From the NCBI RefSeq assembly GCF_014850955.1, contig NZ_JACXSS010000001.1, forward strand, positions 4,340,001 through 4,404,000: a stretch of 64,000 bases of DNA, in the 5' to 3' direction. The DNA comes from Methylomonas albis (GTDB lineage Bacteria > Pseudomonadota > Gammaproteobacteria > Methylococcales > Methylomonadaceae). Below, piece by piece: positions 37,201 through 49,195 of this stretch. The notes beneath the pieces were generated by a model. The model was not told the origin of the DNA. It did not search any database and saw only the letters and a list, made by a program, of their open reading frames with translations. A program made the translations under genes and the position numbers. Numbering within the stretch: the first letter of the stretch is position 1; every line of letters begins with the position of its first letter.

Positions 37201-40200
37201 GCCAATTTCGACGTGTCGTTCCAGGAAATTTTTGGCGCCTGGAAAACCGGCAGTGCCTTAGTTTTGGTGCCGGATGAAGTTCGCCGCGAACCGCAACAAT
37301 TGCTCGATGTATTGAGCAATCATGCGATTGAACGGCTGTTTATCCCGATAGCCGCGCTGAATAATATCGCCGAGCTAAGCGCCAATCTCGACCTATCCTC
37401 GCTGCCGTTGCGGGAAGTCATTTGCGCCGGCGAACAATTAAAAGTCACTCCGGCCCTGCGGAGATTTTTTACCCAGACCGGCAACAGCCTATTGCACAAC
37501 CACTACGGCCCTAGTGAAAGCCATGTCGTCACTGCTTACACCCTTGCTCAAGATAGTGCGCATTGGCAGGAAATGCCGCCCATCGGCACACCCATCCGCA
37601 ATACCCGCATTTACCTACTAGACCCCACCCTGGAACCGGTGCCGGTCGGTGTCGCGGCTGAGTTGTACATCGCCGGTGCGGCGTTGGCCCGTGGCTATTT
37701 AAACCGTCCGGCCTTGACCGCCGAGCGCTTCGTCGCCGATCCGTTCTCGCCCGGTGCCCGGATGTACCGTTCCGGCGATTTGGCGCGCTGGCGCGAGGAC
37801 GGCACGCTGGAGTTTTTGGGACGGGCCGACAGTCAGGTCAAGATTCGCGGTTTCCGCATCGAGCCCGGCGAGGTGGAGGCTTTGTTGTTGGCCTTGCCTG
37901 GTGTGGCGCAGGCGGCTGTGGTGGCCCGCGACGACGGCCTCGGTTTGCAGTTGGTGGCCTATTGGGTGCCGGCCGTCGGCGCCGAGCTGTCTACCTATCA
38001 ATCCGACGCGTCGTTGCGCGCGGCCTTGGCGGCGCAGTTGCCGGACTATCTGCGGCCGTCTGCCTTTGTGAAGTTAGAGGCCTTGCCGTTGACGCCGAAT
38101 GGCAAGCTGGATCGGCGCGCCTTGCCGACACCGCAACGCGGCGGGGCCCGGTTTGTGGCGCCGATTTCTTCGGAAGAAGCGCGTTTGGCGGCGTTGTTCG
38201 GCGAGGTGTTGGGGCTGGAGCACGTCAGTGTGGCGGATTCGTTCTTTGCACTGGGCGGGCATTCCTTGCTGGCGACCCGTTTGGTCAGTCGGGTGCGCGA
38301 GGCATTTGCGCTGGAGCTGCCGATCCGGGCTTTATTTGAGGCGCCGACGGTGGCGCAATTGGCTTTACGTCTGCGTGATATGCTCGGTGCAAGAGCGCCG
38401 CTGCTGGCCTTGCCGCGCCCTGTGCGCTTGCCGTTGTCGTATGCCCAGCAACGCTTGTGGTTTATTCACCGTCTGGAAGGCCCCAGTGCAACCTATAACA
38501 TTCCTATCGCCCTGCGTTTAAGCGGTCAGTTGAATGTCGAGGCGCTCGAACAGGCGTTGCTCGATCTGCTGTCTCGTCATGAAGCCTTGCGCACCCGCTT
38601 CCCGGAGTTCGACGGTGTGGCTGCGCAGGCGATTGTGCCGGTTGCGGCTATTGGTTCTTTTTTGAACCGCTGCCGGGTCACGGAAGCGGAGCTGGCTGAG
38701 CAGTTACAAACCGCCGCCGATACCGCGCTGGATATTAGCGTGGAGTTGCCGTTTCGGGCTTGGTTGTTTGCTTCGACTCCGCTCAGCACAAGTGTCGATC
38801 CGCTCAGCACACGTGTCGATCCGCTCAGCACCGACTCTTTAGGCCAGGAAGAGCAAGTATTGCTGCTACTGGTGCATCACATCGCCGCCGATGGTGCGTC
38901 GATGGCGGTGTTGGCGGACGATTTGACTTTGGCCTATAGCGCCCGTTGTCTGAACCAGGCGCCGGCTTGGGCGGATTTGCCGATTCAGTATGCCGATTAT
39001 GCGCTCTGGCAGCGCCAGGCCTTGGGGGCGGTGGACGATCCCGGCAGTCCGATGGCCCGGCAGTTGGCGTTCTGGACGTCGGCTTTGGCCGGGATTGCCG
39101 ATGAGTTGCTTCTGCCGACCGATAGACCCAGGCCGGCGGTCGCTTCCTATCGCGGCGGCACGGTGCCGCTTCGGTTGTCCGCCGAACTGCATCGGGCCTT
39201 GCTGACTTTGGCCCAGGCCGAGCAGGCGTCGCTGTTCATGCTGTTGCAGGCCACGTTGGCGGCGCTGTTGTCGCGCTTGGGGGCCGGCGAGGATATTGCG
39301 ATTGGCACGCCGATTGCCGGCCGCACCGACCGGGCGATCGAGGGTTTGATCGGCTTTTTCGTGAATGCGCTGGTGTTGCGCTGCGATGTGTCGGGACGGC
39401 CTTCGTTACGCACGCTACTGCAACGCGTGCGGGCCTTCGATCTGGAGGCTTACGCGCATCAGGATTTGCCGTTCGAGTTGTTGGTCGATGCCTTGCAACC
39501 GGCGCGTTCGATGGCTCGCCATCCGCTGTTTCAGGTGATGCTGGCCTTGCAGAATACCGCCCGTCCGCGCATGGCTTTGCCGGGGCTGACGCTGGCACTG
39601 GAACCCTTGGCGCACCACAGCGCCAAGTTCGATTTGTTGGTGAGTTTGGCCGAGCATTACGATGAGCAGGGCGAACCCTTGGGCTTGAGCGGCGAGCTGG
39701 AATTCAGCCGCGATCTGTTCGATGCCGAATCCGTCGAACGCTTAAGCAGCCGTTGGTTAAGGCTGATCGAACAGGCCGTGGCCCAACCGGATGCGCCCTT
39801 GTATCAGTGCGATATTCTGACCCCGGAAGAACACCATACGCTGCTGGAAAAATTCAACCCCGCCCCGCAGCCTGTTCCCGAAGCCACCTTGCCGGAACTG
39901 TTCGAAGCCCAAGTGGCGCGTGATCCGGCCGCCATTGCCTTGGTCTTCGGCGATCTGACACTCAGCTATGCCGAACTTAATGATCGCGCCAACCGGCTGG
40001 CGCACTATCTGCAAACCCTGGGCGTCGGACCGAATACCTTGGTCAGCATTTGCGTGGAACGTTCGCTGGACATGCTGGTGGGCGTGCTGGCCATACTCAA
40101 AGCCGGTGGCGCTTATCTGCCGCTGGCGCCCGATTACCCTCGGGATCGTTTGCGCTTTATGCTGGATGACGCAGCGGTATCGGTGCTATTGACCCAGGAA

Positions 40201-43200
40201 CGACTGCTGGCCGCGTTACCGACCAAAGAGCTACGCGTAGTGTGCCTGGATCGCGATCTAGCGCTATTTTCCGCCGGCAACCGCGGCATGCCGCCCTGTA
40301 AGGCGCAAGCCGACGATCTTGCTTATCTGATCTATACCTCCGGCTCCACCGGTCAACCCAAAGGCGTCGCCGTCAGCCACCGAAATGTAGTGCGTTTGGT
40401 GCGCTCGAACGGCTGCTTGAGTTTCGATAGCCACGAAGTATTTTTGCAACTGGCTCCGCTGGCCTTCGATGCTTCTACGCTGGAAATCTGGGCGGCGCTG
40501 TTGAACGGCGGTCGCTTGGTGCTAATGCCGCCGGGTCAATCCAGTCTGGAAGACATTGGCCGTCACATTCGTAACTATGAGGTGACCACCTTGTGGCTGA
40601 CGGCGGGGCTGTTCCATTTGATGGTGGATGAACGACTGGCAGATTTAAGCGGTGTGCGACGCCTGTTTGCCGGTGGAGAAGCCTTGTCCGTACCCCACGT
40701 ACAGAAGGCCAGAGCAGTGTTGGGAGACAACCGGATTATCAACGGCTATGGGCCGACCGAAAACACCACCTTTACCAGCTGCTATCCGGTAGCGTCCGCC
40801 GATGCCATCTGCTCATCGGTGCCCATCGGCAAACCGATCGCCAACACTCGCGCGTATGTTCTGGACAACGCCCTGCTACCGGTGCCGGTGGGCGTGACCG
40901 GCGAGTTATATACCAGCGGCTTCGGCCTTGCCCGGGGCTATCTAAACCGCCCGGCCCTTAGCGCCGAACGCTTTGTCGCCGATCCGTTTTCGTCAATTCC
41001 CGGAGCCAGGATGTATCGTAGCGGCGATTTGGCGCGCTGGCGCGAAGACGGCAATCTGGAGTTTTTGGGGCGGGCCGACGGCCAAGTGAAAATTCGCGGT
41101 TTCCGTATCGAACCCGGCGAAATTGAAACGGCATTACTGGCCGTGGCAGAGGTCATGCAAGCCGCGGTGGTAGCCCGCGACGACGGGCTCGGTTTGCAGT
41201 TGGTGGCGTATTGGGTGCCATCCCTTGGCGCGGATTTAACCAACGAAACGTTGCGTCGGCTATTAGCCGAGCAGTTACCGGACTACATGCTGCCTTCGGC
41301 CTTTGTGGCGCTGGAAGCTTTACCGCTGACCGCCAACGGCAAGTTGAACCGTCGCGCCTTGCCTGAACCGGAACGCGGCAAATATGCATTTGTGCCGCCC
41401 GCTTCGCCCGAAGAACTGTCCTTGGCGGCACTATTTGGCGAGTTACTGGGTCTGGATCGCGTCAGTATTACCGACTCCTTTTTTGTGCTGGGGGGACATT
41501 CGCTGCTGGCAACCCGCTTGGTCAGCAGGATACGTGAAACGTTTGCCGTGGAAATGCCGATCCGGGCGATATTTGAGGCGCCCACCGTGGCGCAATTAGC
41601 CATGCATCTGCACGATTTGCGTAGCGCCAGATCGCCCCTGGTCGCATTGCCGCGTCCCGAACGCTTGCCGCTGTCTTATGCGCAGCAACGCTTGTGGTTT
41701 ATTCACCGTCTGGAAGGCCCTAGTGCAACCTATAACATACCTATCGCTCTGCGTTTAAACGGGCATCTGGATGCCGACGCGCTTGAGCGGGCTTTGTTCG
41801 ATCTAGTAGCGCGTCATGAAGCCTTGCGTACACGCTTCCCCGAATTCGAGGGCGTGGCCGAGCAGGCGATTGTGCCGGTCGCCGACATTGGTTCGCTGCT
41901 GAGCCGCTGTCAGGTTACCGAGCTGGAATTACCCGCTCGCTTGCAACAGGCCGCCGATACCGCGTTGGATATTAGCGTGGAGCTGCCGTTTCGGGCTTGG
42001 TTGTTTGCTTCGGCTCCGCTCAGCACAAGTGTCGATCCGCTTGGCACCGACTCTTTAGGCCAGGAAGAGCAAGTATTGCTGATACTGGTCCACCACATCG
42101 CCGCCGATGGTTCGTCGATGGCGGTGTTAGCCGACGACTTGAGCTTGGCTTATAAGGCCCGCTGTCTAAATCAGGCACCGACATGGGCGGATTTGCCGAT
42201 TCAGTATGCCGATTATGCGCTCTGGCAACGTCGAGCCTTGGGTGCGGTGAATGATCCAAACAGTCCGATGGCCAAACAGTTGGCATTCTGGAAAATGGCC
42301 TTGGCCGGGATTGCCGATGAGTTGCCTCTGCCGACCGACAGGCCCAGGCCGGCAGTCAGTTCCTATCGCGGCGGCACGGTGCCGATTCGGCTGTCCGCCG
42401 AACTGCATCGGGCCTTGCTGACCCTGGCCCAGGCCGAGCAGGCTTCGCTGTTCATGCTGTTGCAGGCCACGTTGGCGGCGCTGTTGTCGCGCCTGGGCGC
42501 CGGCGATGACATTCCTATCGGTGCGCCAATCGCCGGCCGAACCGATCAGGCCATTGAAGGTTTGATCGGCTTTTTCGTCAATACGCTGGTATTGCGCACC
42601 GACCTGTCGGGACGGCCTTCTCTGCGTACCGTATTGCAACGGGTGCGAGCATTCGACCTGGAAGCTTATGAGCATCAGGATTTGCCGTTCGAACTGTTGG
42701 TCGATGCCTTGCAACCTGCCCGCTCGATGGCCCGCCATCCGCTATTCCAGGTGATGTTGGTGCTACAAAACACCGTCAATGCGCGCCCGGATTTGCCGGG
42801 AATCAGCGTAGCCCTGGAACCTCTGGTAGGCTCCAGCGCCAAGTTCGACCTGTCGATCAATTTGGCGGAACAATACGGACCCAACGGCGAAGCCTTGGGT
42901 TTAACCGGCGTATGGGAATTCAGTAGCGACTTGTTCGATGCCGACACCGTCGAGCGCTTTAGCCGCCGCTGGTTAAGCCTGATCGAGCAGGCCGTGATGC
43001 AAGCGGATGCGCCGCTGCATCAATGCGATATTTTGCCGGCACAAGAACGCTGCATGCTGCTTAACAATCAAACTTATGTTCTGGACAATGCATTGCAACC
43101 GGTACCGGTCGGTGTAATCGGCGAGTTATATACCGGCGACATCGGTTTTGCCCGCGCTTATCTCAACAATCCGGTTTTCTGCGCCGAACGCTTTGTCGCC

Positions 43201-46200
43201 GATCCTTTCTCCGCCATTCCCGGTTCACGAATGTACCGTACCGGCGACTGGGTGCGCCGGCGTAAAGACGGTAATCTGGAATTTATCGGTCGTGTCGATG
43301 CCCCTGTAAAAGTTCGCGGCTTCATGCCCATCGAAGCGGCCGAACCAAAAAACGCTTTCACCCAGTCGCCGACGCCGACCGAATCGACCTTGGCCGAAAT
43401 CTGGTGCGAAGTACTGCACTTGCAACACATAGACCGGCGGGATAATTTCTTCGCGTTGGGCGGACATTCGCTGCTGGCGACCCAAATGGTTTCGCGGATT
43501 CAGCGAGACCTTGGCATCGTCATGCCTTTCCGTACGCTGTTCGAAAATCCAACGCTGTGCGCGCTGGCTGAATATCTCGCCCAATGCCGGACCCGAGGCG
43601 AGCATAGCCCACCGCCCATCTCGGCGGCTTCCCGCGATCAGCCCTTGCCGTTATCCTTCGCCCAGCAGCGTTTGTGGTTCCTGGACCGGCTCGGCAGCGG
43701 TGCGGCTTACAACATGTCATTGGCCTTGCGTTTATGCGGACAACTTGACCTCTCGGCATTAGAACAGTCCCTGAGCGAAATCGTACGCCGTCATGAAAGC
43801 TTGCGTACCACGTTCGACAATAGTGCCGAGCAACCTTACCAACGCATCCGCGCACCTCAACCGCTGGAATTGCTGGTAACCGATTTGAGCCACCTGCCTG
43901 ACGCTTTACGCCAAACAGAAATTTGCCGTGAAGCCCGGCAAGATTCGTTGCAGGTCTTCGATTTAAGCCGCGACTTGATGTTGCGGGCAAAGCTGCTCCG
44001 GCAGGACGAAGACCAGCATGTATTGTTGCTCAGCCTGCACCATATCGCCGCCGATGGCTGGTCTCTCGACATTTTGGTACATGAACTGACCGAACTGTAT
44101 GCCGCATTCGCAGCCGACAGACCCTCGACTCTGGCTGAGCTACCGGTGCAATACGCGGACTTTGCGGTCTGGCAACGGCAATGGCTGCAAGGCGAGGCAC
44201 TGGAGCAGCAAATCGCATTCTGGAAAAAGCAATTGCAAGACGCGCCCGCGTTATTGGTGCTGCCAACCGACAGGCCGCGTCCGCCAGTCGAAAGTTTCCA
44301 GGGCGGCGCTTATCCGCTAAGCTTGGATGCCAAGCTGACTTCAGGGCTTAAAAAGCTTAGTCGCGACACAGACACCACCTTGTTCACCACCTTGCTGGCG
44401 GCGTTTCAAGTGTTGCTGGCTCGTTACAGCGGCCAAGAGGATATCGTCGTCGGCTCGCCGATTGCCAACCGCAATCGTCTGGAAACCGAACCGCTGATCG
44501 GCTTTTTTGCCAACACCCTGGCGCTACGGGCAGACCTTTCCGGTAACCCCGGTTTCCGTCACCTACTGGCGCAGCTTAAACAAACCCTGCTGCTGGCACA
44601 GGATCACCAAGACCTGCCGTTCGAACGTTTAGTCGAAGAACTGCAGATCGAGAGGAACCTGAGCTATAACCCTATTGTACAAATCGTTTTTACCTTGCAA
44701 GCCGCCAAAAAGGACGGCTTCGAGCTTCCGGACCTGGAAATCAGTGCATGCGAGTTCGCCGAACCTAGCGTGCGCATGGATTTGGAATTACATTTGCGGG
44801 AACAGGCGGATGGCATTGTCGGCAGTTGTTGTTATGCCGCCGACCTGTTCGATGAAACCACCATCAGACGTCTGATGGCACACTTTTCCAACCTGCTGAA
44901 TGGCATTCTCGCCGACCCGGACCAGCCCATTCCGGCCTTACCCTTGCTGGATGAAAACGAATCCCGGCAAATGCTGGTCGATTGGAACAACACCTTTGCC
45001 GACCTTCCCAAGGATCTTTGCCTCCACCAATTGTTCGAACAACAAGCCTCGCGCACGCCGGATCAAGTGGCGGTAGTCTATGGCGAACAACGTTTGAGCT
45101 ACCGTCAACTCGACCAACGCGCCAATCAGCTGGCGCACCATTTACGAACTTTGGGCGTCATACCGGACACTCTGGTCGGTATCTGCCTGGAACGCTCGGC
45201 GGACATGGTAGTGGGCATTTTGGCGATACTTAAAGCCGGCGGAGCTTACCTGCCGCTGGATCCGGCTTATCCGCAAGAACGGCTGGCGCACATGCTGGAA
45301 GACGCGGCGGCGCCGGTGCTGTTGACCCAGTCCGCACTGTTGGACCGCTTACCGGCTCATAACGCCAAACCGGTTTATTTGGATAGCGACTGGCCGCTTA
45401 TCGAAGCATTGCCGAATACCCAGCCTAGCAGTGCTGTGACTACCGACAACTTGGCCTATGTCATCTACACCTCCGGCTCCACCGGCAAACCCAAGGGCGT
45501 GTTAGTAGAGCATCTCGGCGTGTGCAGCATCATACAGGCACAAATCGCGTTGTTGGAAATCGGCACGGATGACCGGATTTTGCAATTCGCCTCGTTAAGT
45601 TTCGACGCCGCCGCATCCGAGATCATGTTAGCGCTGGGCAGCGGTGCGGCTTTATATCTAGGTACACGCGAAAACCTGGCACCGGGCGAACCCTTGCGGC
45701 GTTTTCTCAGCGACAATGCCATTACGGTGGCGACAGTAACGCCCTCGACGCTGGCCGCATTACCGCATGATTCGCTACCGGCCTTGCGCACCTTGGGCGT
45801 GGCCGGGGAAGCCTGCTCCGCCGAACTGTTCGGACTGTGGGCGAAAAATCGCCGTTTCTTCAATCTGTACGGCCCGACCGAAGCCAGCATTTGCGCTACC
45901 GCTTGGCTCTGCCAGACGATTACCCCCCAGGCCCCGCCCATTGGGCGTCCGCTTGCCAATGTCCAGGTCTATATCCTCGATGCCTTGCAACAACCGGTGC
46001 CTATCAGCGTGGCCGGGGAACTGTATATCGGCGGCGTCGGCGTGGCGCGCGGCTATTTGAACCGCCCGGAATTGACCGAGGAAAAATTCATCCCCAATCC
46101 GTTCGGCGCTGGACGTTTGTACAAAACCGGCGATTTGAGCCGCTGGCTGCCCGACGGCAATATCGAGTATCTGGGACGCATCGACCAGCAGCTGAAAATC

Positions 46201-47988
46201 CGTGGTTTTCGTATCGAGCCGGGTGAAATCGAATCGGTCCTGGTGCAGCACCCGGCGGTGCGAGAAGCCGTGGTATTGGCGCGCGCGGATCAATTCGGAA
46301 AACCACGGCTGGTCGCCTATCTACTGGTTAATGACCAAACATTGACAACCGCTGTGTTACGCGACTGGTTGCTGGAAAAACTGCCCGATTATATGGTGCC
46401 CACGGCCTTGGTAACGATTAAAGCCTGGCCATTGACCCCCAACGGCAAACTCAATCGACAAGCTTTGCCTGACCCGGAAATACAGTCCAGCGATAACGAC
46501 TACCTCGCACCGCAAACACTCACCGAGTCGGCCTTAGCTGAGGTGTGGCGGCAAGTCCTGAACGTGGAGCGGGTTGGCAGACAAGACAATTTCTTCGATC
46601 TGGGCGGACATTCCTTATTGCTAACCCAATTGATTTACCGCATCGAAACCGCGCTGGGCATATTACCCACCATGCGCGACCTGTTCAGCTTTCCAGCGCT
46701 CAGCGCTCAGGCCGCGCATCTCGACACCTGCCTGCAAACCCGAGGTCAACAGGCTTTAGCCATGCCTAGCGTGGACTTTGTTGCCGAAAGCCAGCTCGAT
46801 CCGGCGATTTGGCCTGCCACTGCCGACTTTGCGCTTACCGCGGAAGAATTGCGAGCGGTATTGATTACCGGGGCATCCGGCTTTCTGGGTGCTTATCTGC
46901 TAGACGAACTCGCTCGGCAAACCTCGGCGGAGCTGTATTGCCTGGTACGCGCCGATAACGCGGAACACGGTGCCCAACGCTTGCGGAGCAACCTTGAACG
47001 GCACGGCCTGTGGCGGGACGAACTGGCGTTACGCCTTCATCCCGTGGTTGGCGACTTGGAACAAATGCGTTTGGGGCTTTGCAATGAGGAATACCGCTAT
47101 TTGGCAGAACAGATAGACGCGATCTATCACTGCGGTGCGCACGATAATCTTCTTTATCCCTACGCTATGCTGAAAGCTGCCAACGTCGATGGCACTCACG
47201 AACTTCTGCGTCTGGCCTGCCTGATCCATACCAAACCGTTGCATCTGGTCTCCACTCTGTCAGTCGTCTCGCCACGAGTCGAACACATCAGGGAAACCGA
47301 TCCCTTGGAATATCCAATGCAAACCGGCATGGGTTATGTCGAATCCAAATGGGTAGCCGAGCAATTGGTCAGATACGCCGCTGAGCGTGGTTTGCCGGTC
47401 ACGATCTATCGTCCAACCCACATTCTTGGTTTGACTACGACCGGCTATACCCATATTGATGATGCCTGGTATCGTCATCGTCTCAACGATATCCAACTGG
47501 GTATCACCACCGTCAATGGGAATAACGAGGATAATCATGTCCCGGTTTATTTTGTCAGTCAGGCGCTGGTTTATCTTTCCCTGCAACGGGCCTCGTTAGG
47601 CAAAGTATTCCATTTGTCTAATCCCCACCCTACGCCAAGGTCTGTTTATCAAAAGGTTTTAAACGAATTGGGTTATCCCGTCATTTCTCTTCCTTTTGCT
47701 CCGTGGTTGGCGCAATTAAGCGAAGCATCCAAAGCGATGCCGGATCTAGGTCTACTTCCTTTGCTTCCGCTATATACTGCTGATAATTCCGAACAAAACC
47801 CTGCGCTGAGCGTGACGCCTTGCATCTACAATGATAATACCGTTGTGGGCCTTGGCGGCAGCGGAATCGCCTGCCCTGAAATCAGTCATACTGAATTGCG
47901 CGCGTATTTCGAGTATTTGATCGCTGAAGGACATTTTCCGTCGCCACATAAGATACAACCATTCAGTCTGGCGACTGACAAGGTCTAA
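19219..47988 (+). CDS. Giant hybrid PKS-NRPS megasynthase (9589 aa) ending in a thioester reductase
   Basis: A single uninterrupted frame of 28.77 kb. The N-terminus (residues 12-32) resembles a PKS docking helix. The PKS module has KS about 37-465 (DTACSSS, EAHGTGT, KTNVGH), AT 602-915 (GHSVGEY, HAFH: malonyl-type), KR 1010-1460 (GGLGALG, YTAAN) and T 1505-1577. The NRPS modules are: 1, C 1587-2050, A 2068-2575, T; 2, C 2668-3150, A 3165-3670, T; 3, C 3763-4247, A 4260-4764, T (GGDSI), E 4856-5327 (HHLTVDGVSW); 4, C 5341-5785, A 5795-6305, T; 5, C 6398-6880, A 6891-7385, T; 6, C 7480-7948, A remnant 7950-8042, T; 7, C 8136-8585, A 8600-9085, T. The reductase spans about 9213-9589 (TGASGFLG, GYVESKW) and implies NADPH-dependent release as aldehyde or alcohol. 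Codes read by eye: A1 DILQIGLVW (Gly-like), A2 and A3 DAWQFGLIQ (Gln-like), A4 DVQFIAHVV (Pro), A5 DALWFGGTF (Val-like), A7 DASTGALIC (unassigned). No Shine-Dalgarno is obvious before the ATG. Near-identical repeats make both assembly and evolution of interest. Confidence 0.97.
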   Translation: MTPTSDPGPAQRDLIKSALLKIDELQAKLKACVAEKNEAIAIVGMACRLPGGVNNPEDFWRLLDEGRDAITEVPAQRWDIEAYYDADPDAPGKMNTRYGGFIEQVEDFDARFFAISPREAQSMDPQQRLLLEVAWEALEFANIPPERVYGSAAGVFIGIIGQDYAQRLFAPAHLQQIDAYVGTGASQGVAAGRLSYCLGLTGPSFSVDTACSSSLVSLHLACESLRRRECELALSGGVNLILEPGLSINFSKARMMAPDGRCKSFDSGADGYVRGEGCGVLVLKRLSDALADGDRVLAVVRGSALNQDGPSGGLTVPSGPAQEQVIRQALRHAGLSPAAVSYVEAHGTGTALGDPIELGALDQVFSPSRSVDNPLYLGSVKTNVGHLEAAAGVAGIIKLVLALQHESLPRHLHCRQPTPRFPWADKPLRVLQASQPWQRGERPRIAGISSFGFSGTNAHVIIEEAPLALSAQSLQWDQAKPSNQPIETAGPVDLIPAVAATATAASASASPPQPLLVLSARSEPALRALALRYRDFLYASPNLAPLDLCASAATGRNHFPYRLALSAASIAAFAEALAAFADANPVEGLFTHPLPATTAPATAFLFTGQGAQYPGMGQRLYQTQPLFRQALDGCAEQLLPYCPVPLVELLFASTAAALDQTVYTQPALFCLEMALAEFWQALGVRPAAVLGHSVGEYVAACVAGVFSLADALKLLCARARLMQALPAGGAMAAVFADETRVTQVLSEQAATLVNRLAIAAINGPDNVVISGEEAALQQVLETLQTQHIGHRRLQVSHAFHSPLMEPMLAAFAKVAAEVHFHVPRIPLISNVSGQLITEAIATPAYWLEHIRKPVRFADSVAALKQRRISLLLEIGPHPVLLGMAASLCPDAVLIPALRQHTADDQQVNRALGQLFVHGESIDWPSLYPKHRHQSLQLPTYPFQRQRFWVERSLQQPAAPDSPLLSLLQAGNAEALSQYLQSQGELSADELRLLPKLSGLLIRGHQSVNANLDSLCYRPIWQQQSRLSASALAPGAAPSRPWLIFSSDEAAELTQGFQDAGLTGIRVSPGNRYAQTASDVWSLDAENADDYRVLLEAIQPQAIVYLWPSAPTPPDALGEAALMQVILLARAAALQPAVKLWLITPSASNAADHAPTSPFPWLLTGLARSLFLEYPQLKGGVIDLDPGETPALIRELLNPGDEDAISLRGGKRYVARLAGYPPPPAAVVRCKADGAYLISGGLGALGLKTARFLAENGAGQLILLGRKAPGEAARDTLDFIRQLGVQVRLLQADSGDEAAMSELFKQIATGDFRLKGIIHAAGVLSTRSLNELDREGLSQVLAPKLRGAWTLHRLSMDLQLDFFVLYSSISAVLGTAQLAAYTAANGFLDGLAAYRQGLGLPVLSINWGPWQTGGMIADETATQVAASGFTPLDAHSALALFGRLLASSQSRVAVVDADWPRLKSLYEIRGPQPLLALLGQSPAAMPTAPNEVRDQWLQAARAKHRTDEELLAALFAEVLGLDSVGPDDSFFALGGDSLLATQLVSRVREAFSLELPAKTLFDAPSVAQLLMCLRDLRGARATISALARPERLPLSYAQQRLWFIHRLEGPSATYNIPIALRLSGQLNVEALEQALLDLLSRHEALRTRFPEFDGVAAQAIVPVAAIGSLLKRCRVTEAELAEQLQTAADTALDISVELPFRAWLFASTPLSTSIDPLGTGSSTTEQQVLLMLVHHIAADGASMAVLADDLTLAYSARCLNQAPAWADLPIQYADYALWQRQALGTVDDPGSPMARQLGFWKSALAGIADELLLPTDRPRPAVASYRGGTVPLRLSAGLHRALLTLAQAEQASLFMLLQATLAALLSRLGAGEDIAIGTPIAGRTDRAIEGLIGFFVNALVLRCDVSGRPSLRTLLQRVRAFDLEAYAHQDLPFELLVDALQPARSMARHPLFQVMLILQNTAKPRMALPGLRVAMEPLAHSGAKFDLTFDLTEQFDEQGGPLGLSGTVEFSADLFDAESVERLSSRWLRLIEQAVAQPDAPLYQCDILTPEEHHTLLEKFNSAAQPVPKATLPELFEAQVARDPAAIALVFGDLTLSYAELNDRANRLAHALIAQGAGPEALIGLYLERSFELLIALLAVLKSGAAYLPLDTDYPIARIATMLEDASPLLVITSTAMADSLPEGYRHFRLDDSATTADLALRPANNPSNANRLMPLDSRQPAYVIFTSGSTGKPKGIAISHGALSVFLASIQAVVHCDAADRCLAMTTIAFDIAVLELFLPLSRGACVLLSMGSENKDIAEFAQFFARHQPTVMQATPSHWRALLEALPDSDPQLRAICGGEALPQDLAQGLLAKTRSLVNLYGPTEATVWATAQSVTETTLARQRTPLLDIGTPLDHYRIYLLDPTLEPVPVGVAAELYIAGAALARGYLNRPALTAERFVADPFSPGARMYRSGDLARWREDGTLEFLGRADSQVKIRGFRIEPGEVEALLLALPGVAQAAVVARDDGLGLQLVAYWVPAVGAELSTRLSDESLRAALAAQLPDYLRPSAFVKLEALPLTPNGKLDRRALPAPQRGGARFVAPVSSEEARLAALFGEVLGLERVSVADSFFALGGHSLLATRLVSRVREAFALELPIRALFEAPTVAQLALRLRDMLGARAPLLALPRPVRLPLSYAQQRLWFIHRLEGPSSTYNIPIALRLSGQLNVEALEQALLDLLSRHEALRTRFPEFDGVAAQAIVPVAAIGSILKRCRVTEAELAEQLQTAADTTLDISVELPFRAWLFASTPLSTSVDPLSTSVDPLSTSVDPLSTDSLGQEEQVLLLLVHHIAADGASMAVLADDLTLAYSARCLNQAPAWADLPIQYADYALWQRQALGAVDDPGSPMARQLGFWTSALAGIADELLLPTDRTRSAVASYRGGTVPLRLSAELHRALLTLAQAEQASLFMLLQATLAALLSRLGAGEDIAIGTPIAGRTDRAIEGLIGFFVNALVLRCDVSGRPSLRTLLQRVRAFDLEAYAHQDLPFELLVDALQPARSMARHPLFQVMLILQNTAKPRMDLPGLRVAMEPLAHSGAKFDLTFDLTEQFDEQGGPLGLSGELEFSRDLFDVESVERLSSRWLRLIEQALAQPDAPLYQCDILTPEERHTLLDKFNPSPLPVPEATLPELFEAQVARDPAAIALVFGDLTLSYAELNDRANRLAHALIAQGAGPEALIGLYLERSFELLIALLAVLKSGAAYLPLDPDHPHARVTAMLEDARPIWVITTATLAERLPTNCLAMRLDDPAIVADLALRPADNPSNAHRLTPLSPLHPAYVLFTSGSTGQPKGVMIAHRSLVNHMGWMQQAYPLGSQERVLGRTAATFDASVWELWLPLLAGATQVLISAQQLRDDQSLFEQLDQHQVQIAQFVPSLLASFLAEHGRKPKALRQVFCGGEALSTELTRRVLERWQLGVVNLYGPTETTIQVTHYAAQGPSVNGPTIPIGSPIRNTRIYLLDPTLEPVPVGVAAELYIAGAALARGYLNRPALTAERFVADPFSPGARMYRSGDLARWREDGTLEFLGRADSQVKIRGFRIEPGEVEALLLALPGVAQAAVVARDDGLGLQLVAYWVPAVGAELSTRLSDESLRAALAAQLPDYLRPSAFVKLEALPLTPNGKLDRRALPTPQRGGARFVAPVSSEEARLAALFGEVLGLERVSVADSFFALGGHSLLATRLVSRVREAFALELPIRALFEAPTVAQLALRLRDMLGARAPLLALPRPVRLPLSYAQQRLWFIHRLEGPSSTYNIPIALRLSGQLNVEALEQALLDLLSRHEALRTRFPEFDGVAAQAIVPVAAIGSILKRCRVTEAELAEQLQTAADTTLDISVELPFRAWLFASTPLSTSVDPLSTSVDPLSTSVDPLSTDSLGQEEQVLLLLVHHIAADGASMAVLADDLTLAYSARCLNQAPAWADLPIQYADYALWQRQALGAVDDPGSPMARQLAFWKSALAGIADELPLPTDRPRPAVASYRGGTVPLRLSAELHRALLTLAQAEQASLFMLLQATLAALLSRLGAGEDIAIGTPIAGRTDRAIEGLIGFFVNALVLRCDVSGRPSLRTLLQRVRAFDLEAYAHQDLPFELLVDALQPARSMARHPLFQVMLALQNTARPRMALPGLTLALEPLAHHGAKFDLLVSLAEHYDDQGEPLGLSGELEFSRDLFDAESVERISSRWLRLIEQALAQPDAPLYQCDILTPEERHTLLEKFNPAAQPVPKATLPELFEAQVARDPAAIALVFGDLTLSYAELNDRANRLAHALIAQGAGPEALIGLYLERSFELLIALLAVLKSGAAYLPLDPDHPQARVAAMLEDARPIWVITTATLAERLPTNCLAMRLDDPAIVADLALRPADNPSNAHRLTPLSPLHPAYVLFTSGSTGQPKGVMVAHRSLVNHMGWMQQAYPLGSQERVLGRTAATFDASVWELWLPLLAGATQVLISAQQLRDDQSLFEQLDRHQVQIAQFVPSLLASFLAEHDRKPKALRQVFCGGEALSTELARRVLERWQLGVVNLYGPTETTIQVTHYAAQGPSVNGPTIPIGSPIRNTRIYLLDPTLEPVPVGVAAELYIAGAALARGYLNRPALTAERFVADPFSPGARMYRSGDLARWREDGTLEFLGRADSQVKIRGFRIEPGEVEALLLALPGVAQAAVVARDDGLGLQLVAYWVPAVGAELSTYQSDASLRAALAAQLPDYLRPSAFVKLEALPLTPNGKLDRRALPAPQRGGARFVAPVSSEEARLAALFGEVLGLEHVSVADSFFALGGDSILSIQLVSRARRVGLEIRPRDVFEHPCVADLAKIAGTTLSNKPSTVFEVSGPFPPTPIMARFLSAEGPGNGFYQAMLIQLPAHIEAEQLNAILQAMADHHALLSAHFMRSENGAWQGVIPPKTVTANSRLQRIDLRDMEALSRQQRLNEAINQAAGRLDPANGLLFEALWLSLPEGERLLWIIHHLTVDGVSWRILLSDLDAAWQAICRQQPIVLEPVTTPFRIWAQRLQEYALSAVIAAELAAWKSILARGVPLLPGIILDTQRDTTATSQTFSVSLNPALTLALMTDIPAAFYAQINDVLLTALAVAVAAWRPASKPGVLIDLEGHGREPFADDLDLSRTVGWFTTLYPVSLSLAGIDIDAALRGEADMGLALKQVKDQLRAIPGRGLGFGLLRYLQPNEGQTLADLPSPQLAFNYLGRFAAGINQDWCIATDGNGLSGGADAEMPVTHATTVNAVIVDGPEGATLSAHWCWATRHLDEQSIAKLAEHWQHALRALVSHTRQEGAGGHSPADFPLLALSQPQVSALEQRYPQLETLWPLSPLQEGLLFHALFDSTEADLYSVQTAIDLTGNLEAERLRNACAALLQRHAVLRTGFVHQGQTPLQVVVSQPPLPWQYQDLSDLEAAQQSQRAAAVAAELRTNRFTIDQPPLIRFTVLTLGPQRHRLLVTNHHLILDGWSTPILLKELFSLYRDSSGQNTLSPVSSYGDYLAWLQAQQRPQAHSAWRAYLAGLDTPCLIAPERSDQAINQTPHQWRHNFPQTISRAMHDFARKHDITLNTLFQGAWALLLSRMTGQREVIFGITVSGRPAELPGVEQMVGLMINTVPLRVIVPANQTLAAWLGGLQARQAGLLDFGYLGLTEIQHIAGDLKPLFDTLLVFENYPIDRAAIKQGIGDLKISHIAGHDATHYPLALMVAPGEQIELRLEFDPALFDDRQGRRLGQHLIRLIEQSIAQADAPLYRINILTADERHTLLEEFNATAQPISNITLPELFETRANSDPTATALIFADQVLSYGELNARANRLAHALIAQGAGPEALIGLCLERSFELIIALLAVLKSGAAYLPLDPEYPKARLQVMLQDASPLLVISTSAMAVTLPDTCARLLLNDPSTLTGLALKPQSNPSNVDRLTPLSPLHPAYVIFTSGSTGKPKGVMMSQQALVNLLEWQTQHGVLDSKLRTLQLTSANFDVSFQEIFGAWKTGSALVLVPDEVRREPQQLLDVLSNHAIERLFIPIAALNNIAELSANLDLSSLPLREVICAGEQLKVTPALRRFFTQTGNSLLHNHYGPSESHVVTAYTLAQDSAHWQEMPPIGTPIRNTRIYLLDPTLEPVPVGVAAELYIAGAALARGYLNRPALTAERFVADPFSPGARMYRSGDLARWREDGTLEFLGRADSQVKIRGFRIEPGEVEALLLALPGVAQAAVVARDDGLGLQLVAYWVPAVGAELSTYQSDASLRAALAAQLPDYLRPSAFVKLEALPLTPNGKLDRRALPTPQRGGARFVAPISSEEARLAALFGEVLGLEHVSVADSFFALGGHSLLATRLVSRVREAFALELPIRALFEAPTVAQLALRLRDMLGARAPLLALPRPVRLPLSYAQQRLWFIHRLEGPSATYNIPIALRLSGQLNVEALEQALLDLLSRHEALRTRFPEFDGVAAQAIVPVAAIGSFLNRCRVTEAELAEQLQTAADTALDISVELPFRAWLFASTPLSTSVDPLSTRVDPLSTDSLGQEEQVLLLLVHHIAADGASMAVLADDLTLAYSARCLNQAPAWADLPIQYADYALWQRQALGAVDDPGSPMARQLAFWTSALAGIADELLLPTDRPRPAVASYRGGTVPLRLSAELHRALLTLAQAEQASLFMLLQATLAALLSRLGAGEDIAIGTPIAGRTDRAIEGLIGFFVNALVLRCDVSGRPSLRTLLQRVRAFDLEAYAHQDLPFELLVDALQPARSMARHPLFQVMLALQNTARPRMALPGLTLALEPLAHHSAKFDLLVSLAEHYDEQGEPLGLSGELEFSRDLFDAESVERLSSRWLRLIEQAVAQPDAPLYQCDILTPEEHHTLLEKFNPAPQPVPEATLPELFEAQVARDPAAIALVFGDLTLSYAELNDRANRLAHYLQTLGVGPNTLVSICVERSLDMLVGVLAILKAGGAYLPLAPDYPRDRLRFMLDDAAVSVLLTQERLLAALPTKELRVVCLDRDLALFSAGNRGMPPCKAQADDLAYLIYTSGSTGQPKGVAVSHRNVVRLVRSNGCLSFDSHEVFLQLAPLAFDASTLEIWAALLNGGRLVLMPPGQSSLEDIGRHIRNYEVTTLWLTAGLFHLMVDERLADLSGVRRLFAGGEALSVPHVQKARAVLGDNRIINGYGPTENTTFTSCYPVASADAICSSVPIGKPIANTRAYVLDNALLPVPVGVTGELYTSGFGLARGYLNRPALSAERFVADPFSSIPGARMYRSGDLARWREDGNLEFLGRADGQVKIRGFRIEPGEIETALLAVAEVMQAAVVARDDGLGLQLVAYWVPSLGADLTNETLRRLLAEQLPDYMLPSAFVALEALPLTANGKLNRRALPEPERGKYAFVPPASPEELSLAALFGELLGLDRVSITDSFFVLGGHSLLATRLVSRIRETFAVEMPIRAIFEAPTVAQLAMHLHDLRSARSPLVALPRPERLPLSYAQQRLWFIHRLEGPSATYNIPIALRLNGHLDADALERALFDLVARHEALRTRFPEFEGVAEQAIVPVADIGSLLSRCQVTELELPARLQQAADTALDISVELPFRAWLFASAPLSTSVDPLGTDSLGQEEQVLLILVHHIAADGSSMAVLADDLSLAYKARCLNQAPTWADLPIQYADYALWQRRALGAVNDPNSPMAKQLAFWKMALAGIADELPLPTDRPRPAVSSYRGGTVPIRLSAELHRALLTLAQAEQASLFMLLQATLAALLSRLGAGDDIPIGAPIAGRTDQAIEGLIGFFVNTLVLRTDLSGRPSLRTVLQRVRAFDLEAYEHQDLPFELLVDALQPARSMARHPLFQVMLVLQNTVNARPDLPGISVALEPLVGSSAKFDLSINLAEQYGPNGEALGLTGVWEFSSDLFDADTVERFSRRWLSLIEQAVMQADAPLHQCDILPAQERCMLLNNQTYVLDNALQPVPVGVIGELYTGDIGFARAYLNNPVFCAERFVADPFSAIPGSRMYRTGDWVRRRKDGNLEFIGRVDAPVKVRGFMPIEAAEPKNAFTQSPTPTESTLAEIWCEVLHLQHIDRRDNFFALGGHSLLATQMVSRIQRDLGIVMPFRTLFENPTLCALAEYLAQCRTRGEHSPPPISAASRDQPLPLSFAQQRLWFLDRLGSGAAYNMSLALRLCGQLDLSALEQSLSEIVRRHESLRTTFDNSAEQPYQRIRAPQPLELLVTDLSHLPDALRQTEICREARQDSLQVFDLSRDLMLRAKLLRQDEDQHVLLLSLHHIAADGWSLDILVHELTELYAAFAADRPSTLAELPVQYADFAVWQRQWLQGEALEQQIAFWKKQLQDAPALLVLPTDRPRPPVESFQGGAYPLSLDAKLTSGLKKLSRDTDTTLFTTLLAAFQVLLARYSGQEDIVVGSPIANRNRLETEPLIGFFANTLALRADLSGNPGFRHLLAQLKQTLLLAQDHQDLPFERLVEELQIERNLSYNPIVQIVFTLQAAKKDGFELPDLEISACEFAEPSVRMDLELHLREQADGIVGSCCYAADLFDETTIRRLMAHFSNLLNGILADPDQPIPALPLLDENESRQMLVDWNNTFADLPKDLCLHQLFEQQASRTPDQVAVVYGEQRLSYRQLDQRANQLAHHLRTLGVIPDTLVGICLERSADMVVGILAILKAGGAYLPLDPAYPQERLAHMLEDAAAPVLLTQSALLDRLPAHNAKPVYLDSDWPLIEALPNTQPSSAVTTDNLAYVIYTSGSTGKPKGVLVEHLGVCSIIQAQIALLEIGTDDRILQFASLSFDAAASEIMLALGSGAALYLGTRENLAPGEPLRRFLSDNAITVATVTPSTLAALPHDSLPALRTLGVAGEACSAELFGLWAKNRRFFNLYGPTEASICATAWLCQTITPQAPPIGRPLANVQVYILDALQQPVPISVAGELYIGGVGVARGYLNRPELTEEKFIPNPFGAGRLYKTGDLSRWLPDGNIEYLGRIDQQLKIRGFRIEPGEIESVLVQHPAVREAVVLARADQFGKPRLVAYLLVNDQTLTTAVLRDWLLEKLPDYMVPTALVTIKAWPLTPNGKLNRQALPDPEIQSSDNDYLAPQTLTESALAEVWRQVLNVERVGRQDNFFDLGGHSLLLTQLIYRIETALGILPTMRDLFSFPALSAQAAHLDTCLQTRGQQALAMPSVDFVAESQLDPAIWPATADFALTAEELRAVLITGASGFLGAYLLDELARQTSAELYCLVRADNAEHGAQRLRSNLERHGLWRDELALRLHPVVGDLEQMRLGLCNEEYRYLAEQIDAIYHCGAHDNLLYPYAMLKAANVDGTHELLRLACLIHTKPLHLVSTLSVVSPRVEHIRETDPLEYPMQTGMGYVESKWVAEQLVRYAAERGLPVTIYRPTHILGLTTTGYTHIDDAWYRHRLNDIQLGITTVNGNNEDNHVPVYFVSQALVYLSLQRASLGKVFHLSNPHPTPRSVYQKVLNELGYPVISLPFAPWLAQLSEASKAMPDLGLLPLLPLYTADNSEQNPALSVTPCIYNDNTVVGLGGSGIACPEISHTELRAYFEYLIAEGHFPSPHKIQPFSLATDKV
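24342..24362 (+). repeat. 21-bp minisatellite unit, single variant copy in C1
   Basis: One unit, CTCAGCACAAGTATCGATCCG, encodes LSTSIDP in the loop before HHIAADG of the C domain. It is preceded by GCTTCGACTCCG, as in the other copies. It is followed by an unrelated linker (LGTGSSTTEQQ) instead of further units. Confidence 0.8.
26413..29697 (+). repeat. Module-sized tandem repeat, copy 1 (3285 bp)
   Basis: This unit runs from the C-terminal part of A1 (cgcatttacctgctggac) through T1, C2 and the N-terminal part and core of A2. The next unit starts exactly 3285 bases later with the same sequence. Much of it is identical base for base: the stretch from about 26880 to 27880 differs from 30165-31165 at very few positions. 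The repeat is out of phase with modules: its boundaries fall inside A domains, not between modules. Confidence 0.9.
27589..27659 (+). repeat. 21-bp minisatellite, 3 copies plus partial, in C2
   Basis: Three perfect copies of CTCAGCACAAGTGTCGATCCG followed by CTCAGCAC encode a repeated heptapeptide LSTSVDP in-frame. They lie in the variable linker before the catalytic HHIAADG motif of the second C domain. Because 21 is a multiple of 3, changes in copy number keep the frame. Confidence 0.95.
29698..32982 (+). repeat. Module-sized tandem repeat, copy 2 (3285 bp)
   Basis: The second copy covers the A2 C-terminal part, T2, C3 and the A3 N-terminal part and core. A third, partial copy starts at 32983 (A3 C-terminal part) and departs at the T domain near 33625, where GGHSL becomes GGDSI before the epimerase. 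A fourth partial copy starts at 37606 in A4 and runs through T4 and C5 to about 40000. Such similarity points to recent duplication or gene conversion, and is a known cause of misassembly with short reads. Confidence 0.9.
30874..30944 (+). repeat. 21-bp minisatellite, 3 copies plus partial, in C3
   Basis: The same three-copy array as in C2, exactly 3285 bases downstream. It was therefore carried by the module duplication. Confidence 0.95.
38782..38831 (+). repeat. 21-bp minisatellite, 2 copies plus partial, in C5
   Basis: Two units followed by a partial unit. The second has one substitution (ACACGT for ACAAGT), giving STRVDP. Copy number differs from C2 and C3 although the flanks are nearly identical, which indicates slippage after duplication. 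Confidence 0.92.
42019..42039 (+). repeat. 21-bp minisatellite unit, single copy in C6
   Basis: One unit encoding LSTSVDP in the corresponding loop of C6, followed by LGTDSLGQEEQ. This is probably close to the unexpanded state. Confidence 0.85.
43060..43345 (+). other. Adenylation-domain remnant inside module 6 of the giant megasynthase
   Basis: Between the C domain ending near 43060 and the T domain starting near 43380, a full module would hold about 1.5 kb of A domain; here there are about 290 bases. What is left begins at TYVLDNALQPVPVG and covers the A6-like GELYTGDIGFARAYL, A7 YRTGDW and A8-like GRVDAPVKVRGF. It then switches to linker (PIEAAEPKN) and T (LGGHSLL). Motifs A1-A5, including the ATP-binding loop, the specificity pocket, and A9/A10 with its catalytic lysine, are absent. 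The frame is kept, so the megasynthase is still translated through. The closest partner by eye is the same segment of module 5 (40850-41130). The module cannot activate its own amino acid. Confidence 0.88.
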
Positions 47989-48056: not shown

Positions 48057-48293
48057 ATGACCAATCCCTTTGAAGACAACGAAGCCGACTACCTAGTGTT
48101 AATCAATGATGAAGGACAGCATTCACTCTGGCCGGCCTTTCGCGAAATCCCCAAAGGCTGGAAAACCATCGGCCCGCAAGGGCAACGCCAGATTTGCCTG
48201 GATTGGATCGAAACCCATTGGACCGATATGCGTCCGAAAAGCTTAATTGACGCGATGAACACCGTGACCAATGCAAACTTTCAGACGGAATGA
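48057..48293 (+). CDS. MbtH-like protein (NRPS adenylation-domain chaperone)
   Basis: 78 aa from the ATG at 48057, chosen because MTNPFEDNEADYLVL matches the usual MbtH start and AAGGAA lies a few bases upstream; a longer upstream start would add residues atypical of the family. Hallmarks are NDEGQHSLWPAF, the tryptophans of IPKGW, CLDWIETHWTDMRPKSL, and a length typical of the family (about 70 aa). MbtH-like proteins bind and activate or solubilise adenylation domains. It lies 68 bases after the giant megasynthase on the same strand and is very likely its partner. Its stop overlaps the next small gene (ATGA). Confidence 0.96.
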   Translation: MTNPFEDNEADYLVLINDEGQHSLWPAFREIPKGWKTIGPQGQRQICLDWIETHWTDMRPKSLIDAMNTVTNANFQTE

Positions 48294-48520
48294 CTCAATA
48301 CTATTCAATGACAGCTTTTGTCTCTATTGAGCGACTGAAAATAGCTACTGGTTACGATAGGCCCGGTGATATTGAACGATGCCTAAGAAAAAGTAGCGTT
48401 CGTTACTTATACGGACAAGGGGGTAAAATTTTTACTACGATAGATGCAATCAATGCACCTATGGGATTAAAATTCGACATCCCTGACGCCAATCAAGAGG
48501 TAATCGATTTTATCGATTAA
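48290..48520 (+). CDS. DUF4224-like small protein (phage/integrative element type)
   Basis: 76 aa from the ATG overlapping the MbtH stop; an inner ATG at 48308 (MTAFVSIERLK) is an equally good start. The pattern IERLKIATGYDRPGDIERCLR resembles the short DUF4224-like, possibly DNA-binding proteins found just before tyrosine integrases in prophages and islands. The next ORF is an integrase fragment, which supports this. It is not part of peptide synthesis despite the coupling geometry. The family call is by pattern only. Confidence 0.55.
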   Translation: MTQYYSMTAFVSIERLKIATGYDRPGDIERCLRKSSVRYLYGQGGKIFTTIDAINAPMGLKFDIPDANQEVIDFID

Positions 48521-48526
48521 ACGCCC

Positions 48527-49195
48527 ATGACTAAAGGACCTGCGCGAACAGCTGTTATACCGACCGATATTGAAGCCAGAAAACTGGCGACTGGTGTCTG
48601 GTGGGATAAGTCAGGTAGTGGTAAATGGATGTTCAAATACAAAGATCCAGACCTTGGGAAATGGCGATCAAAGCGACTGATCAGTCCAAAGTCATCTTTG
48701 GCAGAAATTTGGCAAGCATACGAAAGTCTGAGTGTTCCCATGGCGGCTACCTTCGCATCTATTAGTCTCGACTTCCAGCTAACACCTATCTGGCGCAAAT
48801 TGGCTACATAAACGCAAAAAGATTATCTAGATTGTCATCAACGGTGAATTGTCGGAAAGCAGGGCAAATAAAGAGCTTGCATACATAAAACGAGATTTCT
48901 CATGGGCATACGAATTGAAAAAATTAAATTCAATCCGACGGTAGGCGTGAAAAAGCTATCAATCAAACCTCGCCAACACTACGCCGAAGATCGTGATTAC
49001 GAATTTATGCTCAAGATCGCTCAAGAGTCTAATTATTGGTATCTCTGGCCGGCCGTGGAAATTGCCATCTTTGCCGTATGCGTTTGTCGGAAGTGCTGGA
49101 TCTCACCGATGCAAATGAATTGCCGGAAGGCCTACTAAGATGAATGTTTACGATGTAAAAATTGAAAACGGTGAAACCGTCTAACGAATGACCAT
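48527..49195 (+). pseudogene. Degraded tyrosine recombinase (integrase)
   Basis: The piece 48527-48811 (94 aa, TGVWWDKSGSGKWMFKYKDP, LAEIWQAYESL) looks like an integrase N-terminal arm-type domain. After the TAA the same frame continues TQKDYLDCHQR, the expected start of the core-binding domain, before another stop. A second piece from 48902 reads NPTVGVKKLSIKPRQHYAEDRDYEFM ending WPAVEIA. A frameshift then puts RMRLSEVLDLTDANELPEG in another frame, which would carry the first catalytic Arg. The part with H-x-x-R and the tyrosine is missing. There are thus a premature stop, an internal deletion, a frameshift and a 3' truncation. The remnant ends about 55-100 bases from a tRNA 3' end, a classical integration site. 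Confidence 0.75.

What the first reader, a model, noticed from the sequence alone, without database searches (positions are those of the whole stretch)
43060..43345. Module 6 of the giant megasynthase has lost almost all of its adenylation domain but kept the frame
C6 and T6 are intact by motif (VHHIAADGSSM, LGGHSLL), but between them only a roughly 90-residue piece with A6-A8 motifs remains. The ATP loop, specificity pocket and A10 lysine are gone. Either the carrier is charged by another A domain in trans or in cis, or the module is skipped, or it passes the chain without extension. Kept frame and intact partners suggest selection for an uninterrupted protein, and the piece resembles module 5's A domain.
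Basis: partly seen in the sequence, partly recalled or inferred. Interest (0 to 1): 0.78.

Follow-up and report, generated by a model that had tools for sequence, protein, structure and literature searches.

The report
Shrunken, conserved A domain in megasynthase
One station of a giant peptide-making enzyme in a probable methane-eating bacterium has lost the part that activates its amino acid and kept only a small, apparently folded piece; a bacterium of another genus has the same piece at the same length, so it looks like a working part rather than wreckage.

Summary
In the 9,589-residue PKS/NRPS (19219-47988), module 6 has intact C and T domains with only about 90 residues of adenylation domain (43054-43320) between them. 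C-end to T spacing is 163 residues, against 573-593 in the six full modules. It is neither an assembly fault nor a fresh loss: Methylobacter tundripaludum SV96 has the same module with identical spacing and no gap across the remnant, 82% identical there. Remnant dN/dS is 0.19, like its neighbours. It groups with A5-type domains. Its A8 motif is degraded. The surviving piece coincides with the 77-residue MbtH-binding region of an A domain that was crystallised alone with its MbtH-like protein (6EBY). An MbtH-like gene follows the megasynthase in both species. I read it as an old A-less elongation module whose carrier is charged by another A domain, most likely A5, as shown for fungal SidD and SidC, with the remnant kept as a folded spacer and possibly an MbtH dock. 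Skipping without extension is the main rival; product chemistry must decide. New variant of a known kind.

The parts
19219..47988 (+). Hybrid PKS/NRPS megasynthase, 9589 aa: KS-AT-KR-T, then C-A-T modules 1-7 with E after T3, A6 reduced, terminal NAD(P)-binding reductase
39826..41328 (+). A5, full adenylation domain just upstream; closest relative of the remnant within the protein (limits approximate)
41626..42969 (+). C6 condensation domain, seven motifs intact, dN/dS 0.14 against SV96 (limits approximate)
42970..43053 (+). C6 to remnant linker, with the 5' deletion junction at its end
43054..43320 (+). A6 remnant, 89 residues, motifs A6-A8; A8 degraded (GRVDAPVKVRG here, GHADKPVKSPG in SV96); dN/dS 0.19
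43063..43296 (+). Stretch that aligns with the 77-residue MbtH interface-forming region of FscH (6EBY chain B)
43183..43185 (+). Ala at the first of two Ala positions of the MbtH-like protein contact, kept in both species; placed by spacing
   Evidence: PMC7593251 passages
43198..43200 (+). Ala at the position inserted into the MbtH Trp pocket (Ala841 in ObiF1, Ala433 in SlgN1), kept in both species; placed by spacing
43237..43239 (+). Arg at the salt-bridge position to the MbtH-like protein, kept in both species; placed by spacing
43321..43386 (+). Linker from remnant to T6, predicted with low confidence (probably disordered)
43387..43593 (+). T6 carrier domain, phosphopantetheine site intact (LGGHSLL); groups with T7 rather than T5, weakly
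43636..44898 (+). C7 condensation domain, only about 40% identical to C1, C2, C3, C5 and C6
44956..46458 (+). A7, full adenylation domain; lacks the Ala-Ala-Arg MbtH contact pattern (Glu-Pro-Lys)
46864..47565 (+). Terminal reductase (NAD_binding_4)
48057..48293 (+). MbtH-like protein gene directly downstream (NDEGQHSLWP and WTDMRP present); a homologue lies directly downstream of the megasynthase in SV96 too

Best explanation
Module 6 is an old, fixed A-less elongation module (C6-remnant-T6). Shown: the reduced A domain is shared by the window's lineage and M. tundripaludum, of two genera, and the A6-A8 piece has been kept at constant length under purifying selection while its A8 motif decayed. 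Inferred: C6 still makes a peptide bond, and T6 is charged by an adenylation domain of another module, most likely A5 one module upstream, in the way SidD A1 loads T2 and SidC A3 loads T4. The remnant acts as a folded spacer that holds C6 and T6 at working distance, and may keep an MbtH-like protein docked there. If A5 loads both T5 and T6, the product carries the A5 residue twice in a row.
For: Same module, same ends and same 163-residue spacing in SV96. dN/dS: remnant 0.190 (codon bootstrap 0.07-0.45), C6 0.141, T6 0.188, against C5 0.130, A5 0.163, T5 0.144, C7 0.167, A7 0.224, T7 0.109; 0 of 2,000 neutral simulations gave as few amino-acid changes. C6 motifs and the T6 Ser site intact in both species. 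Remnants of both species are sisters (100/99) inside a group with A5 tails (95/93), on a shared stem of 0.32. The remnant alone is predicted folded, pLDDT block means 84-95 over residues 11-30 and 41-80 and 64 over 31-40; first fold match is 6EBY chain B. The specificity-code residues placed agree between the species, which suggests the same assembly line. Precedent: SidD/NPS6 module 2 has a truncated, inactive A domain and T2 is loaded by A1 (PMC10192304, passages).
Against: No loading was tested. T6 is nearer T7 than T5 (49.4% against 44.3% identity; grouping support 80/89), so A5 may not recognise it, and A7 or a separate enzyme may be the donor. Purifying selection would also follow if C6-r-T6 only had to fold and pass the chain on. 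The comparison rests on two sequences; the short linkers on either side of the remnant have dN/dS 0.39 (0.09-1.17) and 0.56 (0.06-2.1), not separable from neutral. Other PF00501 proteins exist in the genome (19 matches in all) and their substrates were not examined.
Confidence: 0.5

Rival explanations
1. Module 6 is skipped or is a pass-through: T6 is never aminoacylated, the chain goes from T5 to C7/T7 directly or by way of T6, and C6-r-T6 is kept because the protein needs it as a spacer.
For: Deleting the A6 domain of plipastatin synthetase in the laboratory gave products with modules skipped; deleting T6 gave a non-producing strain, and the authors report the same for C6 as data not shown (PMC5984369, abstract and passages). 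No A domain able to work is left in the module.
Against: C6 keeps seven of seven motifs searched and dN/dS 0.14, like C5 (0.13) and C7 (0.17), and T6 keeps its Ser site in two genera; a spacer would not need an intact HHxxxDG. This is weak evidence, because catalytic and fold constraints overlap.
Confidence: 0.3
2. T6 is charged by a separate adenylating enzyme acting in trans, as recalled for Ramo17 in ramoplanin.
For: Several PF00501 proteins lie outside the synthetases of this cluster.
Against: Every PF00501 match that one search places inside the window lies in one of its three long synthetase frames, so no separate A enzyme is encoded beside the module. Substrates and partners of the distant ones were not tested.
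Confidence: 0.12
3. The remnant is a dead relic on its way out, or an assembly artefact.
For: The A8 motif is degraded in both species and the shared stem is long.
Against: A separate genome of another genus has the same ends and spacing; 0 of 2,000 neutral simulations gave as few amino-acid changes. In the 100 kb of SV96 that I fetched, runs of N occur only at 741442 and 743772, some 18 kb before its module 6.
Confidence: 0.05

Closest known systems
SidD / NPS6 module 2, truncated A domain (dA), fungal siderophore NRPSs (PMC10192304, passages)
   Same: A naturally truncated, catalytically dead A domain inside a module; its T is loaded by an upstream A domain (shown for SidD).
   Different: dA lacks about 290 residues from its N-terminus; from that description I infer that it keeps its C-terminal part. 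Here the C-terminal Asub (A9-A10) is gone as well, leaving only A6-A8. Bacterial, not fungal; loading not shown.
Tistrella thalassospiramide synthetase module 1, truncated A domain (review PMC5577590, passages)
   Same: Bacterial hybrid PKS/NRPS with a truncated, presumably dead A domain whose carrier must be served from elsewhere.
   Different: It is the first module, where substitution gives N-terminal diversity; here it is an internal module near the end.
6EBY: MbtH-like FscK bound to the interface-forming region of the FscH A domain
   Same: The same A6-A8 subdomain, 77 residues; TM-score 0.89 normalised by that chain, 56% identity in the structural alignment.
   Different: That chain is a fragment of a full A domain (6EA3 holds the larger one); here the genome encodes only this piece. 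Every A domain has a homologous region, so the match alone does not prove MbtH binding.
Plipastatin synthetase with A6 deleted (PMC5984369, abstract and passages)
   Same: C and T kept, A removed, in an internal module.
   Different: Engineered; it led to skipped modules and changed products.
Myxochromide S module skipping (recalled; seen here as reference titles and one sentence)
   Same: An inactive internal NRPS module.
   Different: As recalled, a point-mutated module and not one with its A domain deleted.

Membership tests
Truncated-A (dA) modules with inter-modular loading (SidD/NPS6 type) | Catalytically incapable, truncated A domain between an intact C and an intact T | tested here: met
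   (by motif; no activity measured)
Truncated-A (dA) modules with inter-modular loading (SidD/NPS6 type) | Truncation conserved between species | tested here: met
   Second genus, same ends and spacing; two members in all
Truncated-A (dA) modules with inter-modular loading (SidD/NPS6 type) | C-terminal part of the A domain (A9-A10, Asub) kept, as I infer from the 290-residue N-terminal loss reported for dA | tested here: not met
   Asub absent here
Truncated-A (dA) modules with inter-modular loading (SidD/NPS6 type) | T charged by an A domain of another module | not testable with these tools
   Needs protein loading assays
Skipped NRPS module (myxochromide S type) | Product lacks the residue of the module | not testable with these tools
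   Product unknown
Skipped NRPS module (myxochromide S type) | Carrier or C domain disabled (recalled feature) | tested here: not met
   C motifs and T6 Ser site intact
MbtH-binding A subdomain | Fold of the 6EBY fragment | tested here: met
   Rank 1 of the PDB fold search with the remnant model; other A domains follow closely, as expected for homologues
MbtH-binding A subdomain | Ala, Ala and Arg contact residues | tested here: met
   A-A-R in both remnants; 10 of 36 aligned rows have it, the two remnants included; A7 does not. Positions assigned by spacing
MbtH-binding A subdomain | Binds an MbtH-like protein | not testable with these tools
   An MbtH-like gene is adjacent in both species; binding not shown

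The most novel reading that the evidence does not exclude
Nature has reduced an adenylation domain to its MbtH-binding subdomain: the remnant is a dedicated docking platform for the MbtH-like protein encoded next door. The docked protein takes the structural place of the lost domain, stabilising an A-less module and positioning T6 for loading by A5. This would be a role for MbtH-like proteins apart from activating adenylation.
Probability: 0.25. Interest if true: 0.7.

Novelty: new variant of a known kind. Interest (0 to 1): 0.5.

Why it matters
Removing or swapping adenylation domains is a main aim of NRPS engineering and often fails. Here is a natural case, shared by two genera, of an A domain pared down to one small subdomain inside a working-looking module. 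It suggests a minimal spacer that keeps C and T usable without A, gives a sharp test of inter-modular loading in bacteria (is the A5 residue doubled?), and points to a possible scaffold role for MbtH-like proteins.

Tried and rejected
Assembly collapse: rejected by SV96.

A full A6 in a relative: with a C6-end/remnant/T6 query, 2 of 237 genomes of the family had a match at E <= 1e-40, the window's and G141 (at most 11 candidates per genome scored). G141 is taken to be SV96 because contig length and coordinates agree with L024. A T6-C7 query gave matches at E <= 1e-100 in 49 of 237 genomes; of those listed, only these two exceed 51% identity (at most 6 candidates per genome scored). So no relative with a full A6 was found, and the state before the deletion was not observed. 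In the genus, 11 of 37 genomes had DNA matches by the call's tally, the window's own included; those listed in other genomes were at most 240 bases long.

Convergent cases elsewhere: in a class-level sample of 369 genomes, 2 had a match at E <= 1e-30, the window's and one that matches only query residues 70-178 (at most 7 candidates per genome scored, so not exhaustive). Of the 33 other loci of the genome-contig scan, 31 have the A3 loop 142-179 residues upstream of the tail; L047 lacks the motif but its HH motif lies 631 residues upstream, within the range of the others, and L033 has only 209 residues upstream. Six loci whose matches reached past the tail each have an A3 or A5 motif upstream. 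The viral collection gave none. The plasmid search listed 5 of 1,226 records, each spanning about 250-300 bases more than the query stretch it matches, as with a full Asub.

Weak points of the MbtH idea: keeping Ala-Ala-Arg at 82% identity could be chance; the contacts are mapped by spacing; 6EBY is only the 11th of 55 sequence matches by E-value, and full A domains follow it closely in the fold search. The AlphaFold alignments held full A-domain rows or their tails, which biases the remnant towards its parent fold. The A8 end and the following linker have low confidence. A fold search with the whole C6-r-T6 model returned C domains and whole modules first and told nothing further on the remnant.

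Literature searches listed no description of this remnant; I opened passages only, and the library lacks most subscription papers. One search (M. tundripaludum with 'nonribosomal peptide') listed 2 papers; in PMC5061366 the species appears only as a transporter homologue, and PMC12811070 was seen only in the listing.
Full report
What is there. The window lies in a 5.4-Mb genome of 2 contigs that carries two matches to the AMO/PmoA family, so it is probably a methanotroph; the genome search puts it in the same family as SV96, which is a member of Methylococcaceae. The open frame 19219-47988 (9,589 residues) encodes KS-AT-KR-T followed by seven NRPS modules and a terminal reductase. Six modules have full A domains with A3, A5, A7 and A8 motifs. 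Module 6 has C6 (HHIAADGSS) and T6 (LGGHSLL), and between them only a piece with A6, A7 and a degraded A8. The distance from the C-end helix to the T motif is 163 residues, against 573-593 in the other six modules, so 416 residues are missing relative to module 5. By alignment the first cut starts in the C-A linker and ends just before the A6 strand; the second starts after A8 and ends just before T6, removing Asub.

It is shared by two genera. A scan of one genome per species gave one locus that matches nearly the whole query (residues 1-216 of 218, 80% identity): Methylobacter tundripaludum SV96. The part of its megasynthase held in that locus aligns with the window's residues 5212-9578 at 80.6% identity, with the same remnant, the same ends and the same 163-residue spacing; no gap occurs from the C6-end linker to the T6 core, and the remnant is 82% identical. 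In the 100 kb fetched, its runs of N lie some 18 kb before module 6. In the family, 2 of 237 genomes gave a strong match to this module: the window's and SV96. The specificity-code residues, placed by recalled PheA positions, agree between the species for A5, A7 and the Gly-like, Gln-like and Pro-like domains; one position of the Pro-like one fell in a gap, the final K was added and not read, and the order at the gapped 5' end of SV96 is uncertain. By recall the codes suggest Gly, Gln-like, Pro, Val-like (A5) and Tyr-like (A7); these labels come from no call.

It is kept by selection. Nei-Gojobori dN/dS between the two species is 0.190 for the remnant (89 codons, bootstrap 0.07-0.45), 0.141 for C6, 0.188 for T6, 0.130 for C5, 0.163 for A5, 0.167 for C7; the two short linkers (28 and 22 codons) have 0.39 and 0.56 with intervals that include 1. 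The remnant differs at 44 nucleotides with 16 amino-acid changes; 0 of 2,000 neutral simulations gave so few, and 1,332 of 2,000 contained a stop. Yet the A8 motif is degraded in both species: D-x-P in place of D-x-Q, and the Arg of GRxD lost in SV96. So the fold seems to be kept and the chemistry not.

Where it came from. In a tree of A tails the two remnants are sisters (100/99) and sit with A5 of both species (95/93), on a shared stem of 0.32. C6 belongs with C1, C2, C3 and C5 (about 81-83% identity), whereas C7 is only about 40% identical to these, and T6 groups with T7 (80/89; 49.4% identity against 44.3% with T5), a weakly supported tree of 79 columns. The module therefore looks like a join between two kinds of modules, with the join at the remnant/T6 border. 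This is an inference; no intermediate was found.

What the piece is. Alone, the remnant is predicted with block pLDDT of 84-95 over residues 11-30 and 41-80 (64 over 31-40) and low confidence from residue 91 on. In the C6-r-T6 model it has block pLDDT of 77-89 over residues 471-500 and 511-550 (57 over 501-510), and the linker to T6 is at 30-42 over residues 551-570. The first fold match in the PDB is 6EBY chain B, 'MbtH-like protein FscK bound to the interface forming region of FscH adenylation domain' (E 1.1e-9, TM 0.89 by that chain); by sequence it matches over query residues 6-83 at E 7.5e-25, 11th of 55. Any A domain has a homologous region, so these matches say which part survives, not that it binds. 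What they do show is that the surviving part is a unit crystallised without the rest of the A domain. The contact residues described in papers (two Ala and an Arg; passages of PMC7593251, PMC6668435 and PMC11355689) fall on A, A and R in both remnants; 10 of 36 aligned rows have this triplet, the remnants included, and A7 does not. An MbtH-like gene lies directly behind the megasynthase in both species (48057-48293 here). This fits docking but does not show it: A1-A5 of the same protein carry the same residues and may be the reason for the gene.

How it may work. The closest experimental precedent is SidD, whose module 2 has a truncated, inactive A domain and whose T2 is loaded by A1, and SidC, whose A3 loads T4 and was proposed to load T5 (PMC10192304, passages). 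A bacterial parallel is the truncated first A domain of the Tistrella thalassospiramide pathway (review PMC5577590, passages). On this model A5 charges T5 and T6. Against it, T6 resembles T7 a little more. The rival is skipping, as when A6 of plipastatin synthetase was deleted (PMC5984369, abstract and passages). Intact C6 motifs and ordinary selection on C6 and T6 favour an active module, but do not settle it.

Verdict.

Noticed in passing
window 27580-27659, 30865-30944, 38773-38831: A 21-base minisatellite (TCGATCCGCTCAGCACAAGTG, 2.8 to 3.8 copies, 94-98% match) lies inside C2, C3 and C5, about 15 residues before the HHxxxDG motif; C1 and C6 have the single-copy form, and the four SV96 C domains compared lack the array. 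In the C6 model this loop has low confidence.
   Followed up: partly
window 26386-37905 (A1-A4 tails) and C1, C2, C3, C5: Signs of concerted evolution: four A tails are identical over about 80 residues, and C1, C2, C3 and C5 cluster with each other rather than with their SV96 counterparts, while C6 and the remnant stand apart.
   Followed up: partly
window 8915-17662: The neighbouring synthetase (TubC_N-C-A-T-KS-AT-KR-T) ends in its own thioesterase, while the megasynthase ends in a reductase, so the cluster may make two products.
   Followed up: no
window 17807-18967: An amidohydrolase-family gene (PF04909) sits between the two synthetase genes; in SV96 an ORF of similar size (391 codons) follows a synthetase-sized ORF of 2912 codons. 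Homology of the two was not tested.
   Followed up: no
SV96 C2:721356-741878 against own genome near C1:4281954: In SV96 ORFs of 3585, 1884 and 605 codons lie before the megasynthase; in the window genome a 3576-codon ORF with an A domain lies about 77 kb upstream of it, so the cluster order may be rearranged. Homology was not tested.
   Followed up: no
window 48290-48811: Two short ORFs of 76 and 94 codons behind the MbtH-like gene have no Pfam match.
   Followed up: no
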